Assembly: GCF_040500475.1 (NCBI RefSeq)
Contig: NZ_CP159358.1
Span: 868,001 to 932,000, forward strand
Direction of reading: 5' to 3'
DNA: 64,000 nucleotides
Source of the DNA: Bacillus sp. Bos-x628
GTDB lineage: Bacteria > Bacillota > Bacilli > Bacillales > Bacillaceae
Shown here: piece after piece, positions 31,119-37,784 of the stretch
How the letters are laid out: every line of letters begins with the position of its first letter
Position numbering within the stretch: the first letter of the stretch is position 1
Notes under the pieces: generated by a model
Seen by the model: the letters and a program-made list of their open reading frames with translations, nothing else
What the model was told of the DNA's origin: nothing
Databases searched by the model: none
Position numbers and translations under genes: made by a program

Positions 31119-31901
31119 TCAAGGCTGCAATTTACTTAAGTGAGGCCGGCCATTACTCCACATTACCTCAACTTGACAATTAAAAAAGGATGAAAGCACT
31201 TCGCTTGTCAATATTTGTTTAGTATCTCCTTTAGCAAAGACAGTTCCTTCTTGTAATAATAAAGTGTGCTGAAAAATCGGTAAAATCTCTTCAGCATGAT
31301 GGGTCGTATATAGTAAAGTTGGGGCATCAGGCTTTGATGCAATAGATGAGATCGTTTCTAACACTTGTTCTCTTGCTAAAAAATCAAGACCTGTTACTGG
31401 TTCATCTAATATCAGCAGTTCGGGATTATTCATTAAAGCTCTCGCAATCAATACCTTTTGTTTTTCACCTTGCGAGAGGGTTTCATACGTGCGATTGGCA
31501 TACTTGAATGATCCAAAGGCTTTTAAAAGATCAATCGCTTTCTCTCTCATACAATCGGTTGGTGATTCATAAAGCCCAATAGAAGCAAATGCTCCGCTTA
31601 ATACAATCTCAAAAGCATGATCTTCTGCATGTAGTTTCTTTTCAAGACCTGCGGAGATGAGACCTATCTTCCTCCTCAGCTTCTCACCGAGTGCCTCCTT
31701 TCCAAATACATGTCCTAAAACTGTCATCTCACCTGATGTCGGAAAATAATACGAACACAACATATTCAAAAGAGCGGTTTTCCCAGCACCATTTAACCCA
31801 TAAAGCACCCAGTTTTCCTTCTCCTTTACTTGCCAGTCTACATGGTGCAATATCCATTTCCCATTTCGTTTTAAAGAAACATCCTTTAATTCAAGTGACA
31901 C
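31119..31901 (-). CDS. ylmA: ABC transporter ATP-binding protein YlmA
   Basis: A 260-residue ABC ATPase: Walker A GLNGAGKT, signature LSQGEKQK, Walker B LLILDEP, and a switch His in TTHHAEE. No membrane partner lies next to it, as for the B. subtilis gene, so its substrate is unknown. I chose the GTG eight bases after AGGAGG; the next in-frame start upstream (31922) would lie in front of that site. It follows the PTS locus terminator. Confidence 0.87.
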   Translation of the reverse strand: MSLELKDVSLKRNGKWILHHVDWQVKEKENWVLYGLNGAGKTALLNMLCSYYFPTSGEMTVLGHVFGKEALGEKLRRKIGLISAGLEKKLHAEDHAFEIVLSGAFASIGLYESPTDCMREKAIDLLKAFGSFKYANRTYETLSQGEKQKVLIARALMNNPELLILDEPVTGLDFLAREQVLETISSIASKPDAPTLLYTTHHAEEILPIFQHTLLLQEGTVFAKGDTKQILTSEVLSSFFNCQVEVMWSNGRPHLSKLQP

Positions 31902-31955
31902 GACATTTTCCTCCTGCATCAAAATAGTCAGAATATACGAATAATTACTGTCTAC

Positions 31956-31990: not shown

Positions 31991-32024
31991 ATAAAAAAGC
32001 TGCTCCTAATTGAAGGAACAGCTT
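31991..32024 (-). terminator. Terminator of the glucitol-type PTS operon
   Basis: AAGCTGTTCCT and AGGAGCAGCTT form a stem with one G-U pair, followed by T6-AT on the minus strand, eleven bases past the IIA stop. Confidence 0.88.
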
Positions 32025-32034
32025 CTTTTCTTTA

Positions 32035-32391
32035 TTATGAAATTTTAATGCGTACGCCTTCTTTTATGTCAGGAAACGTATGCGGGGATGCAAAAACAGC
32101 TCCAGGTAATACATCATCAAACGGCTCTTGGAAGTAAATCGAAATATGGCCAAGTTCTTTAAAGTTTTCATTTGCTTGATTACCTAATGCAGTGATTGTG
32201 TACGTTTGTTCGCCCACTTGAATGGTTCCGCCTAGTTTCAGCGGCTCTTCTTCTAAGTGCTCGAATTCATGAATGACAGACATGTCCTTTAGTTCTTGCG
32301 GCGCTGCTGGTCCAAATAAAACAATCAGCTTATCTTCTTTAAACTGCGGGACTAAGATCCCAATTTCTTTTACAACAGATTGTGTCACCAT
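32035..32391 (-). CDS. PTS glucitol/sorbitol-family IIA component
   Basis: A 118-residue cytoplasmic phosphocarrier of the glucitol-PTS IIA family (GutA/SrlB type). It shows the small beta-barrel pattern, GILVPQF near the start, LIVLFGPAAPQEL, and the C-terminal FPDIKEGVRIKI. His41 in SVIHEFEH is the likely phosphorylation site by position; this is inference. It takes phosphate from HPr and passes it to IIB. It is last in the operon, unlike enteric srl operons where the PTS genes come first. The true substrate is not shown by sequence. Confidence 0.88.
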   Translation of the reverse strand: MVTQSVVKEIGILVPQFKEDKLIVLFGPAAPQELKDMSVIHEFEHLEEEPLKLGGTIQVGEQTYTITALGNQANENFKELGHISIYFQEPFDDVLPGAVFASPHTFPDIKEGVRIKIS

Positions 32392-32417
32392 ATATCTCGA
32401 TTCCTCCTTTAATGCGT

Positions 32418-33428
32418 TTAATACATACCGAAGCTGGCAACGTATGCGATTACAACAGATAGGACCCCTGTAATGAGGCGGCTATATAAAACAGCTGGTA
32501 CGCCATATTGTACCGTTTCCGGCTTTGCTTCACCAAGTGATAGACCAACAGGAATGAAGTCACACCCTACTTGACCATTAATGGCAAATAATGCAGGAAG
32601 CGCAAATTGTGGCGGAATGTTGCCAAGTGCAATTTGACTTCCGATAAGAACACCAATGACTTGTGCAATAACGGCTCCAGGTCCTAAGACAGGTGATAAA
32701 AATGGCAATGTACAGATAACAACGAGTAGTAAGAGCCCCCATAAAGAACCTGCCAAAGGTGATAAGAAATGGGCGATGAGATCACCAATTTTTGTATAAT
32801 TAATAATTCCAATTAACATACTGACAAATGCCATAAATGGAATAATATTTTTCAAAAGCATATCAACAGAATCACGACCCGCCTGATAAAACGTTCCGGT
32901 TACTTTCCCGATCCCTCTTGAGAATCTCATCAGGAAATTTCCTTTTTCCTGACGTTCGATATTTTCCTGTTTTAACTTTGAATACGTTTCTTTAACCTTC
33001 TCCCTGTCAATCGTCTCGCCAGTCTCTTGACTTTCTGTCTTCATCTCACCATCAGATGCTTCAGCATAGGATATATCTTTTTCTGTTACTCCTGATACGA
33101 AGATATCATCTGTAATATGTTTTGCAAGTGGTCCAGAAGGAGAGGATGCTAACACATCTACTGTCGGGATACGCTTCATTGGATAAAGCCCAATTCGTGC
33201 CGTTCCTCCGCAGTCAATGACAACGCACATCATTTCATCTTCTGGAATTGAGTTTTTAAAGCCATCATATGCTTCTGTACCTGTCATTTCAGCAATTTTG
33301 CGTGCAACGGGGTGAATACCGCCCCCTGTAATCGAAACGACCTTTCTTCTTTTACCGGTTGGTTCAATCTCTAACCCTTTTCCCCATCCGCCAGCACCTT
33401 TTGAAACAAATACTTTGTGGTTTGTCAT
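32418..33428 (-). CDS. PTS glucitol/sorbitol-family IIBC component
   Basis: A 336-residue protein of the SrlE family: an N-terminal IIB domain with [19 protein letters not shown] and the probable phospho-cysteine in [14 protein letters not shown] (about residue 73), a charged linker (about 110-165, rich in Glu and Lys), and a C-terminal membrane domain with about five helices from residue 185. It forms the channel together with the separate IIC protein encoded just upstream. SD GGGAGGGG precedes the ATG. Confidence 0.9.
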
Positions 33429-33441
33429 GTCTAACCCTCCC

Positions 33442-33972
33442 CTATTGTGAATTCGCTTTCATTTTTCCTGCTAAATATTTTGTTATCCATTCAGTCATGA
33501 TTCCACGTAGTAAAATGACAACAATCCCGACTAAAAAGTAACGAACAGCAAGCTCTGACATCGAGTATCCTGCCTCTTTAATTCCGTTCGCAATTCCTAA
33601 ATAGACAAACAGTTCTCCTGCATTTGCATACGGGAACAGTGATGTAACGGGATGAACAAATGAAACAGCCGAATCATAGAATGCTGGTTTTTGTTTTTCA
33701 GGCAAGAAACGACCAAACGTATAAGCCATTGGATTTGTCAAAATAAGAACGGATAGAATCGGCATTAATGTATAGCGTAAAATCGTGTATTTTGCTGCAA
33801 ACTGGATGGCTCTATTGACTCGCTCTTCTCCAATAAACTTCATGACTGCATAGGTAAAAGTAAGTAAGACAACAAGCGTTGGAACGATACCTGTCATAAG
33901 ACTCATGAATTGCTTTCCGCCGGCTTCAAACATTCCGATAAAATGCTCCCCAAACCATTGAATCCATTCCAT
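33442..33972 (-). CDS. PTS glucitol/sorbitol-family IIC component
   Basis: A 176-residue membrane protein of the SrlA family with about four to five helices; [19 protein letters not shown] and [22 protein letters not shown] are typical. It pairs with the IIBC protein to move and phosphorylate a polyol. The spacing of 13 bases to the IIBC gene suggests a stoichiometric complex. Confidence 0.9.
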
Positions 33973-33990
33973 GTTTCATCTCCCCTTTCT

Positions 33991-34422
33991 TTAGTTCACA
34001 TTTGTTATATTTTTTTTCGAGATGGATACAAGTGCCTGCTCGGCTGCCATTGAGATCGCTTGCAGCACTGCAGATCCTTTTTTGCGTTTTTTCAATGTTT
34101 GCTTCATCATATGGTGCTCGTCCAGCACAGCGCCTACATGCTTGCCTTCATATGAAGGAACTTCCTTACATTTCGATAAGATTGAAATCCCGCCAAGCAC
34201 ATGACATTTTTGAATGATAAATGATTCATCGACAATGATGAACGCAATGGCCCCAGGACCAAATTTGCGCCTCTCCATTCCTGAAAATAAGTGATAACCT
34301 TGTTTCCCTTTATAATCATCAATAAGTGTATCCATGCTTTTTCGGTAGTACTTGATTTGAAAAAAAGATAAACCATATTGCACAATGAGGATGATGCAAA
34401 GTACAATGGCTAACTTTTCCAT
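33991..34422 (-). CDS. GutM-family regulator of the polyol operon
   Basis: A 143-residue protein of the GutM (glucitol operon activator) family. It has one N-terminal membrane helix (about 4-21), then a soluble domain with MERRKFGPGAIAFIIVDE and HVLGGISILSKCKEVPSYEG. It contains no DNA-binding motif that I can see, so a role as a membrane-bound modulator is more likely than direct DNA binding. The C-terminal 40 residues are basic. It lies between the oxidoreductase gene and the IIC gene. Confidence 0.82.
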   Translation of the reverse strand: MEKLAIVLCIILIVQYGLSFFQIKYYRKSMDTLIDDYKGKQGYHLFSGMERRKFGPGAIAFIIVDESFIIQKCHVLGGISILSKCKEVPSYEGKHVGAVLDEHHMMKQTLKKRKKGSAVLQAISMAAEQALVSISKKNITNVN

Positions 34423-34434
34423 AGCATCACGTCC

Positions 34435-35679
34435 TTATGATTGAAATAGATGATCTTGCAATGAACGCAACTTCCAGACTGTTGTGTTTGAATCCAGCTC
34501 CACATCATCATGAGATAGGAATTGTCCTGACTTGATATCTTTTTTCGCAACCACTTTACCGCTGATTAAACCAATTGGAATGTGACCGTTCGTTTTCATA
34601 TCTTGATGCGTTTTAAGAACACCTCTGACTGAGTATCCGCCAATTCCGTCAAGTGTTTCTCCTGCTTTAATATCTCTTTTCGCAACAGCAACAGTTTCTG
34701 AGACTGGTACACCAATTGGGTGAATCGATGAATCGTGTTGTAAGACCGCTTTTGCAATTGTCACCGGCGTTTCAAGACTCGCTAAGTGGAAAGGTCGATA
34801 AAGCGTGTAATGAGGGCCTTTCCCAACTTTTAAGTAGCGAAGCTCTTCATCCACTGGCTCAAGCTCACTTTTGACGATAACAAATACACCTGGTGCAAGA
34901 CCCTTTACATATTCAACGACACCAAAGTGATCCAGCACACCGCCTTGTTGTTTTTGGTTCAATTTATCTGCTACATTCTCTAAATTCGCTTCGACTCCGT
35001 GCATGCCCACTTTATCAGGCAAAAGCCCTGTCGCATTACTTAATAGGTTCATTTCTGCCATTGTTTTTGTTCCATCCTGAAAAGCAGCGAGCATGTGTGC
35101 ACTCATATTTTTACTATCTGCTTCTACTTTACATGTATCTGGGTTCGCTTCTGGGAAAAATGGATTATTCTTACCTTTCCCAGCAACTAGCACCTCAAGT
35201 CCCATTGTTTTTGCAAATTCATATAATTCTAAAGTAGCTGCTGGTTCATCTCCAGCTGACCCAGAGTAAACAAGTCCTGCATTTGTGAATAACTTATGCA
35301 TCACTAAACCGATCGTAATGTCGACTTCAACATTTAAAAGAACGAGATGTTTTTTTGAATTAAGCGCTTCCAAAGAAATGTTTGCGCCAACTTCCGGAAC
35401 ACCAGTTGCATCAACAATGACTTCTACGAAATCTGATTGAATGACCTCTCTGTAATCATTTGTGACGACCATTTGATGTGGTTTCGCATGTTGTTTGTAA
35501 AAATTCGCTGCTTTCTCTGCTGCATCAAGGTGAATATCACAAACACCCGCTACAATCATGCCAGGAATATGAGAAATTTGTGAGATCAGTCCAAAACCCA
35601 TTTGTCCTGCACCAATAATCCCCACTTTGATCGGATCTCCGCTACGTTCTCGTGCTAACAACTGTTGATAAATTGACAT
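34435..35679 (-). CDS. Rossmann-SAF oxidoreductase resembling DXR-like (DRL/DXR-II) enzymes
   Basis: A 414-residue protein with an N-terminal homoserine-dehydrogenase-like NAD(P) fold (VGIIGAGQMGFGL, about residues 19-31; VIVDATGVPEVG near 98), a catalytic middle part (GDEPAATLELYEFAKTMGLE, GKGKNNPFFPEANPD) and a C-terminal SAF domain (VAKRDIKAGETLDGIGG to the end). This architecture is that of the DRL family, first known from Brucella, where it does the reductoisomerase step of the MEP pathway. Not all members have that activity. Here it lies with a sugar-alcohol PTS, so oxidation or isomerisation of a polyol phosphate is a fair guess. Start chosen at ATG before SIYQQ, eight bases after AAAGGA. 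Confidence 0.78.
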   Translation of the reverse strand: MSIYQQLLARERSGDPIKVGIIGAGQMGFGLISQISHIPGMIVAGVCDIHLDAAEKAANFYKQHAKPHQMVVTNDYREVIQSDFVEVIVDATGVPEVGANISLEALNSKKHLVLLNVEVDITIGLVMHKLFTNAGLVYSGSAGDEPAATLELYEFAKTMGLEVLVAGKGKNNPFFPEANPDTCKVEADSKNMSAHMLAAFQDGTKTMAEMNLLSNATGLLPDKVGMHGVEANLENVADKLNQKQQGGVLDHFGVVEYVKGLAPGVFVIVKSELEPVDEELRYLKVGKGPHYTLYRPFHLASLETPVTIAKAVLQHDSSIHPIGVPVSETVAVAKRDIKAGETLDGIGGYSVRGVLKTHQDMKTNGHIPIGLISGKVVAKKDIKSGQFLSHDDVELDSNTTVWKLRSLQDHLFQS

Positions 35680-35734
35680 AAAAATCATCCTTTCATGCTT
35701 CACATAGATTGCTAGAGAAATAATCTAAAAATTT

Positions 35735-35804
35735 TAACAAATGTTATAAAAATTAACAAAAATCTAATTTTAGTAACATTTGTTATCATTTTTATCATTT
35801 GTTA
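35735..35804 (-). promoter_or_regulatory. Operator array upstream of the PTS-oxidoreductase operon
   Basis: Sites TAACAAATGTTA (35735-35746), TAACATTTGTTA (35774-35785) and TATCATTTGTTA (35793-35804) share an inverted-repeat core. A degenerate copy TAACAAAAATCT lies at about 35754-35765. Centres are 19-20 bp apart. The same core occurs before the SorC-type gene, so it is the likely binding site of that regulator. The array lies downstream of the promoter. Confidence 0.72.
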
Positions 35805-35813
35805 TGGATTCAG

Positions 35814-35841
35814 TTTATATGATGTGTCAACTTTGTGTCAA
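35814..35841 (-). promoter_or_regulatory. SigA-type promoter of the PTS-oxidoreductase operon
   Basis: TTGACA, 16-bp spacer, TATAAA on the minus strand. A second TTGACA lies inside the spacer. Transcription would start near the first operator site. Confidence 0.65.
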
Positions 35842-35866
35842 GCTAAAATCAATAAAATTTTCAATC

Positions 35867-35915
35867 TTTTTGAGTCTAAAGACTCAAAAAAAACTACCTA
35901 AACAATTAGGCAGTT
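35867..35915 (-). terminator. Terminator after the SorC-type gene plus second inverted repeat
   Basis: AACTGCCTAA/TTTAGGTAGTT with a short loop, followed by T6 or more on the minus strand (35884-35915), ends the regulator gene; its stop codon is inside the stem. Next to it TTTTTGAGTC/GACTCAAAAA (35867-35890) is a second perfect 10-bp inverted repeat. Confidence 0.78.
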
Positions 35916-36852
35916 ACTTTAATAAGGCATCTCCAGTTCGTTCATCTGTAATTAATACATGAATTAATTCGCCCTCTAATACCGCTCGTATGGCTTCAAT
36001 TTTTTCTTCTCCGCCAGCTACACCAATGACAAGCGGGATTTCTTTCAGTTTTTGCGGACTTATTCCCATGACGCGGTCGTTCCATGGATGAGGATATACT
36101 TCTCCTTTTTTATTGATAAAATTATAGCAAATGTCACCTGCCACATCCTTTGCTTGGAGTATGTCCTCCTCACCTTTTGTCATATAAGATTTCACCATGG
36201 TAGAATGCTGCGGAACTCCGCCGATTCCTACAACGGCGATATTTGATTTTTCTCCTAGTTCAATGATTTTTTTGATAGACGGCTGTCTAATGAGAACATC
36301 CTTCGCTTCTTTCGTATCAAGCATGACAGGGACGTGTAAAAATTCACATTTCGACTTGAGTGCTTCTGTACATCTGGCAATAATATAATTGGCATGGATA
36401 TCAACATCTTCATTTCCGACTCCTCCGACAAGTGGAACAAATGTTACGGATGGAAAGTGCTGCACCGACGTAAGCGATTTTGCCATTTCATGCAAAGTCG
36501 TTCCTGATGAAAAGCCGATCACTTGCCCATCTTTCATGACTTTTAATAAAAAGGCTGCAGCTGCCGCACCGATTCGGCTTTTCGTTGTTTCTTGACTGAG
36601 GGATTCAACACATACGACTTCTCGCAATCCATATTTCCTCTCTATCTTTCTTTCTAACGAACCATATTGTTGATTGAATTCATCATGAATAATGATTTCC
36701 ACGATTCCTGCTTCACGTGCTTTTGCCAAATATTTTGATATGAGCGAGCGGCTAACCCCTACCGCTTCTGCAATTTTAGATTGGGTAGCGCCTTCTTCAT
36801 AATACATATGCGCAACCTTAATGAGCAGCCTTCTTTCATCATGGAATGTCAT
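35914..36852 (-). CDS. SorC/DeoR-type sugar-binding transcriptional regulator
   Basis: A 312-residue regulator: N-terminal helix-turn-helix (about 18-50, ATQSKIAEAVGVSRSLISKYLAKAREAGIV) and a C-terminal sugar-phosphate-binding domain (about 60-310) with GFSSGTTLHEMA, PLVGGVGN, VVGIGG and VIGVAGGEEKIEAI. It likely binds the phosphorylated product or intermediate of the PTS substrate. Two operator-like sites precede the gene, so it probably controls itself. A terminator separates it from the PTS operon, which therefore has its own promoter. Confidence 0.9.
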   Translation of the reverse strand: MTFHDERRLLIKVAHMYYEEGATQSKIAEAVGVSRSLISKYLAKAREAGIVEIIIHDEFNQQYGSLERKIERKYGLREVVCVESLSQETTKSRIGAAAAAFLLKVMKDGQVIGFSSGTTLHEMAKSLTSVQHFPSVTFVPLVGGVGNEDVDIHANYIIARCTEALKSKCEFLHVPVMLDTKEAKDVLIRQPSIKKIIELGEKSNIAVVGIGGVPQHSTMVKSYMTKGEEDILQAKDVAGDICYNFINKKGEVYPHPWNDRVMGISPQKLKEIPLVIGVAGGEEKIEAIRAVLEGELIHVLITDERTGDALLK

Positions 36853-36882
36853 AATAACCCTTCTTTCCGCTTAAGTGTTCCC

Positions 36883-36913
36883 TAACAAATGATATGTCAA
36901 ATAACATTTGTTA
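36883..36913 (-). promoter_or_regulatory. Operator pair upstream of the SorC-type gene
   Basis: TAACAAATGATA (36883-36894) and TAACATTTGTTA (36902-36913), centres 19 bp apart, repeat the motif found in front of the PTS operon at the same spacing. A weak promoter candidate (TTGACT, 17 bp, TAATCT) lies just upstream, near 36920-36950. Confidence 0.68.
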
Positions 36914-36971: not shown

Positions 36972-37006
36972 AATGAAAAAAGCCGCTACATAACCAGCGG
37001 CTTTTT
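36972..37006 (-). terminator. Terminator after sigG
   Basis: AAAAAGCCGCT/AGCGGCTTTTT, loop of eight bases, T-rich tail on the minus strand; the sigG TAA overlaps the stem foot. Confidence 0.88.
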
Positions 37007-37784
37007 AAAAAATGTTTTTATTCATTTGTTTAATGGCTGCTTTTTCGAGCCTTGATACTTGTGCTTGGGAAATTCCGATTTCTTCTGCTACTTCCATTTG
37101 CGTTTTCCCTTGGAAAAAACGTTTGCGGAGAATCATTTTTTCTCTATCATTCAACCTGCGCATCCCCTCTTTTAAGGCAAGCTCTTCGACCCATTGAGTA
37201 TCTTTGTTTCGATCATCACTAATTTGATCCATGACATAAATCGGATCTCCTCCGTCGTTATAGATCGGTTCAAACAAAGAAACAGGATCCTGAATTGCAT
37301 CTAGGGCGAAGACAATTTCCTCGTGAGGCACTTCCAGCACTTTGGCAATGTCTTCTGCCGTTGGCTCCTTGCTTGTCTCACTAATCAGCCTCTCACGCAC
37401 TTGGAGCGCCTTGTAGGCAATATCTCTCAGTGAACGAGACACTCGAATGGGGTTGTTGTCACGCAAGTATCTACGGATTTCTCCTATGATCATAGGGACC
37501 GCATAAGTTGAAAATCTAACATTGTGGCTTAAATCAAAATTATCAATTGATTTCATTAATCCAATACAACCCACTTGGAAGAGATCATCAACATACTCGC
37601 CTCTGTTGTTAAAACGCTGAATCACACTTAAAACCAATCGCAAATTGCCATTGACTAGCTTTTCTCTTGCTGTATCGTCCCCCTCTTCCTGTAGCTGTTT
37701 GAACAATTTTCTCATCTCATCGTTTTTCAGAACAGGCAGTTTTGAGGTGTCGACTCCGCAGATTTCTACTTTATTTCTGGACAC
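37005..37784 (-). CDS. sigG: Sporulation sigma factor G (late forespore)
   Basis: SigG directs late forespore genes. The 259-residue sigma-70 member has the N-terminal segment MSRNKVEICGVDTSKLPVL that is bound by anti-sigma factors, region 2 (VDDLFQVGCIGLMKSIDNFD, FSTYAVPMIIGEIRRYLRD), region 3 and region 4 helix-turn-helix (TQMEVAEEIGISQAQVSRLEK). The start is GTG with GGAGGG upstream, as in B. subtilis where the GTG and a leader hairpin damp translation. It follows sigE with its own forespore-type promoter. Confidence 0.96.
   Translation of the reverse strand: MSRNKVEICGVDTSKLPVLKNDEMRKLFKQLQEEGDDTAREKLVNGNLRLVLSVIQRFNNRGEYVDDLFQVGCIGLMKSIDNFDLSHNVRFSTYAVPMIIGEIRRYLRDNNPIRVSRSLRDIAYKALQVRERLISETSKEPTAEDIAKVLEVPHEEIVFALDAIQDPVSLFEPIYNDGGDPIYVMDQISDDRNKDTQWVEELALKEGMRRLNDREKMILRKRFFQGKTQMEVAEEIGISQAQVSRLEKAAIKQMNKNIF

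What the first reader, a model, noticed from the sequence alone, without database searches (positions are those of the whole stretch)
31993..36913. Polyol-type PTS joined to a Rossmann-SAF (DRL-like) oxidoreductase: a pathway of unknown substrate
Seen: one operon encodes glucitol-family IIA, IIBC, IIC, GutM and a Rossmann-SAF protein, with a SorC-type regulator just upstream. No short-chain sorbitol-6-phosphate dehydrogenase, kinase, aldolase or isomerase is present. Known: the glucitol PTS makes polyol phosphates; the SAF oxidoreductase architecture is that of DRL/DXR-II enzymes, which act on 1-deoxyxylulose 5-phosphate in Brucella. Inferred: the enzyme oxidises or isomerises a phosphorylated polyol or deoxy-polyol, giving a central-pathway sugar phosphate in one step. 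That would be a short catabolic route not described for sorbitol.
Basis: partly seen in the sequence, partly recalled or inferred. Interest (0 to 1): 0.75.

Follow-up and report, generated by a model that had tools for sequence, protein, structure and literature searches.

The report
Probable methylerythritol-eating operon
These genes look like the uptake and first-oxidation half of an undescribed bacterial pathway that runs the start of terpenoid synthesis backwards to feed on the branched sugar alcohol 2-C-methylerythritol, which would explain why many bacteria carry a seemingly redundant terpenoid enzyme.

Summary
In detail: a SorC-family regulator gene, then the close-packed genes DRL-gutM-srlA-srlE-srlB, with no sorbitol-6-phosphate dehydrogenase, kinase, aldolase or isomerase beside them. 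By sequence the oxidoreductase is DXR-II/DRL: it keeps the Brucella substrate-site residues, in a genome that also has DXR-I. New here: the operon is half of a regulon. A TPP/lipoyl complex (E1alpha-E1beta-E2-E3), linked to DRL in many genomes, lies about 230 kb away in this one. Its promoter carries the genome's only perfect copy of a tandem operator; one-mismatch copies stand before DRL and before the regulator. In 398 Bacilli genomes DRL and this E1 occur together in 35, alone in 4 and 3. On some alphaproteobacterial plasmids an ABC transporter and a sugar kinase replace the PTS, while DRL-E1-E2 stays. Best reading: 2-C-methylerythritol -> MEP (PTS) -> DXP (DRL in reverse, probably NAD+) -> acetyl-CoA + glyceraldehyde 3-phosphate (E1-E3). 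The coupling is shown by sequence; substrate, direction and the last step are inferred, without assay.

The parts
35914..36852 (-). SorC-family sugar-phosphate-responsive regulator (312 aa)
   Evidence: Pfam Sugar-bind 225 bits; PDB relatives include Lmo0547 (4r9n) and the sorbitol operon regulator 2w48
34435..35679 (-). DRL / DXR-II-type oxidoreductase (414 aa): Rossmann + DRL_cat + SAF
33991..34422 (-). GutM
   Evidence: PF06923, 66.2 bits, cut-off 25
33442..33972 (-). PTS glucitol-family IIC (SrlA type)
   Evidence: PF03608; passes NF049923
32418..33428 (-). PTS glucitol-family IIBC (SrlE type)
   Evidence: PF03612 and PF07663; passes NF049924
32035..32391 (-). PTS glucitol-family IIA (SrlB type)
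   Evidence: PF03829; below the NCBIfam gutA cut-off (75.4 against 189.55 bits)
35735..35785 (.). two exact operator boxes (TAACAAATGTTA / TAACATTTGTTA) before DRL
   Evidence: these two and the one before SorC are the only copies of these two words in the 3.33-Mb genome; binding not tested
35776..35802 (.). tandem operator ACAWWTGT-N11-ACAWWTGT, one mismatch, before DRL
   Evidence: C1:903776-903802
36885..36913 (.). tandem operator (one mismatch, 36885-36911) overlapping an exact box (36902-36913) before SorC
35892..35915 (-). terminator-like hairpin between SorC and DRL
31993..32030 (-). hairpin followed by T run after IIA, probable operon terminator
   Evidence: read from the sequence; not listed by the scan

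Best explanation
The window holds the uptake and first-oxidation half of a two-operon regulon for growth on 2-C-methyl-D-erythritol (ME) or a near relative. [quoted passage not shown] (3) A dedicated E1alpha-E1beta-E2-E3 complex, encoded about 230 kb away, cleaves DXP, a methyl ketone like acetoin, with thiamine diphosphate, CoA and NAD+ into acetyl-CoA, NADH and glyceraldehyde 3-phosphate. (4) SorC-family regulators control both operons through shared tandem operators. Shown by sequence: the operon, the match to the DXR-II substrate site, the linkage and co-occurrence of DRL with the E1-E3 complex, the shared operator words. Inferred: ME as substrate, the direction and cofactor of the DRL step, DXP as substrate of the complex, and binding by SorC.
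For: Substrate-site residues K191, K193 and T229 of Brucella DRL kept, also R320, E174, F178, G121, H250. Own genome has DXR-I and IspF, so DRL is not needed for isoprenoids. E1alpha+E1beta within about 9.5 kb of DRL in 21 of 52 loci, often right behind IIA; ortholog complex unlinked in own genome. Co-occurrence in 398 Bacilli: both 35, DRL only 4, E1 only 3, neither 356. Tandem operator: 5 sites with at most one mismatch in 3.33 Mb, three of them before DRL, SorC and the distant E1alpha; before E1alpha in 7 of 8 other unlinked genomes. 14 of 14 opened alphaproteobacterial plasmid loci at 39-42% identity have DRL-E1alpha-E1beta-E2 in a row, with Gut PTS or with ABC importer plus sugar kinase. 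Five genomes with IspF and no DXR-I have as their only DRL the PTS/E1-linked one, so its natural pair should be DXP/MEP. Title of Testa 2004, seen in reference lists: the sorbitol PTS transports ME into Salmonella. E. coli aceE mutants yield DXP in vivo (abstract). Asp at the end of Rossmann strand 2 in the window and in 34 of 34 loci with PTS, E1 and SorC, against SARR in Brucella.
Against: No growth or enzyme test exists. The E1alpha passes an NCBIfam pyruvate dehydrogenase model (402.1 bits, cut-off 393.85). The total counts of the operator patterns are hardly above the reversed-pattern controls (10 against 6; 5 against 4); only their places speak. In 26 of 52 loci PTS and SorC are near DRL without E1, and Listeria and Ligilactobacillus loci show none. 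A passage in PMC3994034 ascribes phosphorylation of ME in Salmonella to an ATP-dependent kinase, not to the PTS. The DXR reaction favours MEP (recalled). Asp is also found in ispDF-linked DRLs (L051, L101). In DXR-I-less genomes the same DRL must also serve synthesis, which sits uneasily with a purely inducible operon.
Confidence: 0.6

Rival explanations
1. Same genes, other branched substrate: the PTS imports apiitol (2-C-hydroxymethyl-erythritol) and DRL turns its phosphate into D-xylulose 5-phosphate by the same rearrangement, a true one-step route to a central sugar phosphate.
For: Same chemistry as DXR-II; no further enzyme would be needed. Some loci without E1 carry transketolase instead (L046; Ligilactobacillus L124 with fsa and tkt).
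Against: Gives no role to the E1-E3 complex that co-occurs with DRL in 35 of 39 DRL-bearing Bacilli; on xylulose 5-phosphate it would give glycolyl-CoA. In five genomes the linked DRL appears to be the MEP synthase. One literature search for apiitol found three papers, none on its breakdown by title.
Confidence: 0.1
2. DRL is a plain polyol-phosphate dehydrogenase without rearrangement: either sorbitol 6-phosphate to fructose 6-phosphate, as the Listeria operon is described, or a linear 1-deoxypentitol phosphate to DXP, which the E1-E3 complex then cleaves.
For: IIBC and IIC pass NCBIfam's SrlE and SrlA cut-offs; the Listeria operon is called a sorbitol operon in print (PMC11176438, passage). 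The deoxypentitol form keeps a role for the complex.
Against: DRL keeps the DXR-II substrate site. For sorbitol the acetyl-CoA-forming complex has no role. No natural source of 1-deoxypentitols is known to me (recalled).
Confidence: 0.12
3. ME salvage for isoprenoids: the PTS imports ME as MEP for IspD, and DRL works in the synthetic direction as a spare MEP synthase; the E1-E3 complex is a pyruvate or acetoin dehydrogenase that only happens to be co-regulated.
For: In L101 the PTS-DRL genes run into ispD and ispF, the only ispF of that genome; L051 has DRL-ispD-ispF (labels by reading). 19 of 43 DRL-bearing Bacillota genomes lack DXR-I. E1alpha passes a pyruvate dehydrogenase model.
Against: Own genome and 23 other DRL genomes keep DXR-I. 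DRL and the complex share operator words and occurrence; E2, E3 and lipoyl genes point to CoA-dependent oxidation.
Confidence: 0.13

Closest known systems
Brucella DRL / DXR-II (PDB 3upl, 3upy) and the DXR-II clade of Carretero-Paulet 2013 (PMC3847144)
   Same: Whole-length similarity (E about 2e-96), same three domains, substrate-site residues kept; a B. pumilus SAFR-032 protein is listed in that clade.
   Different: Sits in a PTS operon and a regulon with an E1-E3 complex, beside a DXR-I; Asp in place of SARR at the end of Rossmann strand 2; Y322 is F.
Listeria lmo0542-lmo0547 operon
   Same: SorC-DRL-GutM-IIC-IIBC-IIA in the same order (L127); regulator structure 4r9n.
   Different: In print as a sorbitol operon (passage); no E1 complex in the 19-kb stretch opened.
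Sorbitol (glucitol) PTS operons srl/gut of enterobacteria and streptococci
   Same: IIA, IIBC, IIC and GutM families. A title in reference lists says the Salmonella sorbitol PTS transports ME.
   Different: A DRL gene in place of the sorbitol-6-phosphate dehydrogenase gene.
Acetoin dehydrogenase complex AcoABCL
   Same: TPP/lipoyl E1alpha-E1beta-E2-E3 make-up; E1alpha of the distant operon is 50% identical to own AcoA-type, 37% to own BKD-type, 31% to own PDH-type (paralogue labels are mine from gene order).
   Different: A separate group that occurs with DRL; own genome has both.

Membership tests
DXR-II / DRL family | Rossmann + DRL_cat + SAF architecture | tested here: met
   (Rossmann by DapB_N at 29.7 bits, cut-off 25.6)
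DXR-II / DRL family | Lys191, Lys193, Thr229 (fosmidomycin/substrate site) and Arg320 | tested here: met
DXR-II / DRL family | NADPH-type cofactor site as in Brucella | tested here: not met
   Asp at the end of strand 2 in the window against SARR in Brucella; whether NADPH is defining for the family is uncertain
DXR-II / DRL family | turns DXP into MEP (rescues a DXR-deficient E. coli) | not testable with these tools
   indirect only: five DXR-I-less genomes with IspF rely on a PTS/E1-linked DRL
Glucitol-family PTS | IIA, IIBC and IIC of the Gut type | tested here: met
Sorbitol catabolic operon (srl/gut) | sorbitol-6-phosphate dehydrogenase gene in the operon | tested here: not met
   the rest of the genome was not searched for SrlD
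SorC-family regulator | HTH plus Sugar-bind domain | tested here: met
SorC-family regulator | binds the operators named here | not testable with these tools
   words and places only
Acetoin dehydrogenase (distant E1-E3 operon) | E1alpha groups with AcoA | tested here: inconclusive
   nearest own paralogue is the AcoA type (50%), but the name-giving model it passes is pyruvate dehydrogenase; in the quick E1beta tree the DRL-linked rows stand apart from own AcoB, PdhB and Bkd with support 88 and long branches

The most novel reading that the evidence does not exclude
A complete, dedicated and widely shared catabolic pathway for 2-C-methylerythritol, perhaps also for the 2-methyltetrols formed from isoprene in air, that runs the first steps of the MEP pathway backwards and ends in a new activity, an acetyl-CoA-forming 1-deoxyxylulose-5-phosphate dehydrogenase complex. 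It exists with a PTS in Bacillota and with either a PTS or an ABC importer plus kinase on alphaproteobacterial plasmids. Many catalogued DXR-II 'isoprenoid enzymes' would then be catabolic enzymes.
Probability: 0.55. Interest if true: 0.9.

Novelty: new variant of a known kind. Interest (0 to 1): 0.8.

Why it matters
The 2013 survey of DXR-II asked how DXR-II evolved in strains that have DXR-I, since redundant activities should not be favoured, and noted DXR-II in Finegoldia and Anaerococcus strains where no other MEP or mevalonate genes were found (PMC3847144). A reversed, catabolic DXR-II would answer this and can be tested directly. It would add a pathway and an enzyme activity, correct the 'sorbitol operon' label in Listeria, and warn that surveys of fosmidomycin targets based on DXR-II genes mix synthetic and catabolic enzymes. 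2-Methylerythritol and 2-methylthreitol are measured isoprene-derived aerosol tracers (PMC5765163, passages), so the pathway could bear on their fate on leaves and soil (inference; whether aerosol stereoisomers fit is not known to me).

Tried and rejected
(a) My first idea, apiitol to xylulose 5-phosphate, is kept as a rival; it fell once the E1-E3 complex turned up. (b) A rule 'catabolic = Asp, synthetic = Arg' for the cofactor site: Asp in 34 of 34 loci with PTS, E1 and SorC and 29 of 30 with PTS and SorC only, but also in ispDF-linked L101 and in 12 of 22 DRLs with none of these nearby, ispDF-linked L051 among the 12. So it is weak support only. (c) My prediction that DRL genomes with the PTS/E1 layout would have DXR-I failed in part: 19 of 43 DRL genomes lack DXR-I, some with only a PTS/E1-linked DRL. 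I then read this as a sign that those DRLs make MEP. (d) Loci L084, L089, L090, L092, L095, L096, L098, L105 have DRL beside a transaldolase-like gene and a ptsI-like gene (labels by reading); not explained. (e) L045, L046, L102, L104 and L110 carry a class II aldolase, a triose-phosphate-isomerase relative and YjbQ; not resolved. (f) Of the 20 plasmid loci opened, three remote DRLs (L128, L140, L141; 32-34%) had no E1 and were not followed; 91 of the 111 records were not opened. (g) on the 49 loci L073-L121: PTS 25, E1 18, SorC 24, none of the three 20; in 2 (L100, L109) my ORF caller gave no DRL frame. (h) The 66% line for the E1alpha ortholog was set after seeing the gap from 66 to 54%. Searches were taken to draw the same 398 genomes (same size and handles). 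Genomes and loci are related, so counts and the Fisher value overstate independence. The 52 loci were found with words of the window's own DRL and lean to close relatives. (i) The promoter scan gave no more hits than shuffles (15 against 14.8). (j) One search for E1alpha relatives (best 120 of 8000 shown) gave mixed names, pyruvate or acetoin dehydrogenase, so names do not decide. (k) No structure prediction was run; the own genome was not searched for SrlD, IspD, IspE, IspG, IspH or DXS. (l) That the pathway is not in print rests on paper searches, open-access papers only.
Full report
What is in the window. On the - strand, between a sigG-type sigma factor gene (37005-37784) and an ABC ATPase gene (31119-31922), lie a SorC-family regulator gene (35914-36852) and, after a terminator-like hairpin (35915-35892), five close-packed genes: DRL (34435-35679), gutM, srlA, srlE and srlB. 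No sorbitol-6-phosphate dehydrogenase, kinase, aldolase or isomerase gene is there. The ten nearest DRLs are from the Bacillus pumilus group (94-98% identical; L002-L010, L030), so the window very likely comes from that group.

The oxidoreductase. Its best solved relative is Brucella DRL (3upl/3upy, E about 2e-96; the next is 3.6e-06). Using residue roles given in Carretero-Paulet 2013 (PMC3847144; parts 1-4 of 8 and the Discussion read), the window protein keeps K191, K193 and T229 (fosmidomycin/substrate site), R320, E174 and F178 (dimer-interface cavity), and G121 and H250 (divergence sites); Y322 is F. By sequence it is DXR-II; that paper lists a B. pumilus SAFR-032 protein in its DXR-II family. 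The window's genome also has DXR-I and IspF, and only one DRL.

The missing second half. Of 52 loci with DRL from other genomes, 47 have Gut-PTS genes, 48 a SorC gene and 21 an E1alpha plus E1beta pair within about 9.5 kb. The pair belongs to a TPP/lipoyl complex E1alpha-E1beta-E2-E3, often right behind IIA on the same strand. The window's own genome has this complex too, unlinked, at C1:1,130,763-1,137,248, about 230 kb from DRL, with a second SorC gene and a small zinc-ribbon-like gene behind it. It differs from the genome's other complexes: its E1alpha is 78% identical to the DRL-linked one of Neobacillus (L011), 53% to that of an Agrobacterium plasmid (L122), 50% to the own acetoin type, 37% to the own branched-chain type and 31% to the own pyruvate type (type labels are mine, from gene order).

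Co-occurrence. Of 398 Bacilli genomes, 39 have DRL at E up to 1e-60 and 38 the E1alpha ortholog (identity 66% or more; the next hit is 54%). Both 35; DRL only 4 (G515, G557, G639, G662); E1 only 3 (G451, G456, G537); neither 356; Fisher p = 3e-42, which overstates independence because genomes are related. In 26 of the 35 the two genes lie within 20 kb; in 9, the window's genome among them, they do not.

A shared operator. TAACAAATGTTA or TAACATTTGTTA occurs at 3 places in the 3.33-Mb genome, all in this locus: two before DRL, one before SorC. The looser TAACANNTGTTA has 10 places against 6 for the reversed control. The tandem form ACAWWTGT-N11-ACAWWTGT has 5 places with at most one mismatch, against 4 for the control: before DRL, before SorC, before the distant E1alpha (the only perfect copy), and two elsewhere. 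So the numbers are not above chance; the places are the evidence. In the fetched loci ACAWWTGT lies upstream of 17 of 28 E1alpha, 40 of 56 DRL, 14 of 24 GutM, 27 of 62 SorC and 1 of 13 IIC genes that have a gap of at least 90 bp, against 16 of 327 other genes (many loci are close kin). In the unlinked genomes the perfect tandem box stands before E1alpha in 7 of 8 besides the window's own, and in G520, G488 and G715 also 640-680 nt ahead of IIC of the PTS-DRL genes. Of 45 perfect tandem boxes in 2.48 Mb of fetched loci (with overlap, such as L067 and L071), two are not clearly in front of a pathway gene (L034, L079).

A transporter swap. A protein search of the plasmid collection found 111 records with DRL relatives; 40 were listed as a spread and I opened 20. 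All 14 alphaproteobacterial ones at 39-42% identity (H4-H17) have E1alpha-E1beta-E2 right behind DRL. Pseudoroseomonas and two Rhizobium plasmids have the Gut PTS beside it. Agrobacterium, S. meliloti Rm41 and S. chiapasense have an ABC sugar importer and a sugar kinase instead (PfkB family in the first two), the first two with lipA at the end. Three Aminobacter plasmids have a different, polyamine-type ABC importer nearby, and one Shinella plasmid has no importer directly beside the genes. PTS, or importer plus kinase, gives the same kind of product, a phosphorylated polyol. The three remote DRLs (32-34%) lacked E1, as did the three Bacilli records (Listeria, Enterococcus, Ligilactobacillus).

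What the substrate is. Of 43 DRL-bearing Bacillota genomes, 24 have DXR-I and 41 IspF. Five of those without DXR-I but with IspF (G034, G229, G160, G311, G380) have as their only DRL the PTS/E1-linked one; it should then be what makes MEP there, unless a gene is missing from the assemblies. In L101 the PTS-DRL genes run into ispD and ispF, the only ispF of that genome, which also has DXR-I. So DXP/MEP is the likely natural pair of this enzyme. [quoted passage not shown] paper not held), though PMC3994034 ascribes its phosphorylation there to an ATP-dependent kinase (passage). DXP is a methyl ketone with a neighbouring hydroxyl group, like acetoin; aceE (PDH E1) mutants of E. coli yield DXP in vivo (PMC3424233, abstract), so this carbon bond is within reach of an E1 enzyme. 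Joined up: ME to MEP to DXP to acetyl-CoA plus glyceraldehyde 3-phosphate. The steps are inferred; the coupling of the genes is shown.

Direction. The window has Asp at the end of Rossmann strand 2, as do 34 of 34 loci with PTS, E1 and SorC; Brucella has SARR. By the usual rule (recalled) Asp favours NAD, which fits oxidation. G271 and G395 carry both types: Asp in the E1-linked copy, Asn-Arg in the other. But ispDF-linked DRLs and 12 of 22 others have Asp too, so this is weak.

Limits. The own E1alpha passes a pyruvate dehydrogenase model; that of L011 falls just short of it (390 against 393.85). Loci without E1 exist: 26 of 52 have PTS and SorC only, though in the pumilus group the complex lies elsewhere. 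Listeria (L127), Ligilactobacillus with fsa and tkt and Halolactibacillus with transketolase (L046) may break the ketose in another way or use another substrate. No experiment was possible.

Known or new. The operon layout occurs in Listeria and has been called a sorbitol operon (passage). DXR-II is known as a synthetic enzyme whose persistence beside DXR-I was stated as a question. No paper held any of six phrases on methylerythritol breakdown, and none held a DXR-II term together with 'sorbitol PTS' or 'acetoin dehydrogenase' (both papers listed hold only the DXR-II terms). The library is open-access only.

Verdict. A real, conserved, most likely catabolic regulon, built of known families in an arrangement and probably a direction not described in what I could search. 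New variant of a known kind; interest 0.8.

Noticed in passing
G000:C1:1130763-1131092 (L071:1764-2093); also L014:17908-18288: A small (about 105-130 aa) zinc-ribbon-like protein of no clear family lies beside the E1-E3 operon or DRL in many loci: family f22 in 10 loci, n9 in 17 frames; only sub-threshold Pfam hits. That f22 and n9 are one family is by eye.
   Followed up: partly
L084, L089, L090, L092, L095, L096, L098, L105: A second DRL context: transaldolase-like gene, sometimes a lone IIA, DRL, the zinc-ribbon-like gene, then a ptsI-like gene.
   Followed up: no
L045, L046, L102, L104, L110: DRL-PTS loci with a class II aldolase, a triose-phosphate-isomerase relative and YjbQ; perhaps another way to break the ketose, or another polyol.
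   Followed up: no
L101:11955-12479: One 174-aa frame reads like the start of GutM joined to the end of IIC, so IIC may be truncated in this ispDF-linked locus.
   Followed up: no
L011-L013, L016, L020, L034, L039, L040 and others: A galactitol-type PTS with a BglG-type regulator and a zinc alcohol dehydrogenase often lies in the same region (labels by reading).
   Followed up: no
L047-L050; L122, L123: Lipoyl/octanoyl-transferase-like genes (below the curated cut-off) or lipA sit in the clusters, so lipoylation of the E2 may be supplied locally.
   Followed up: partly
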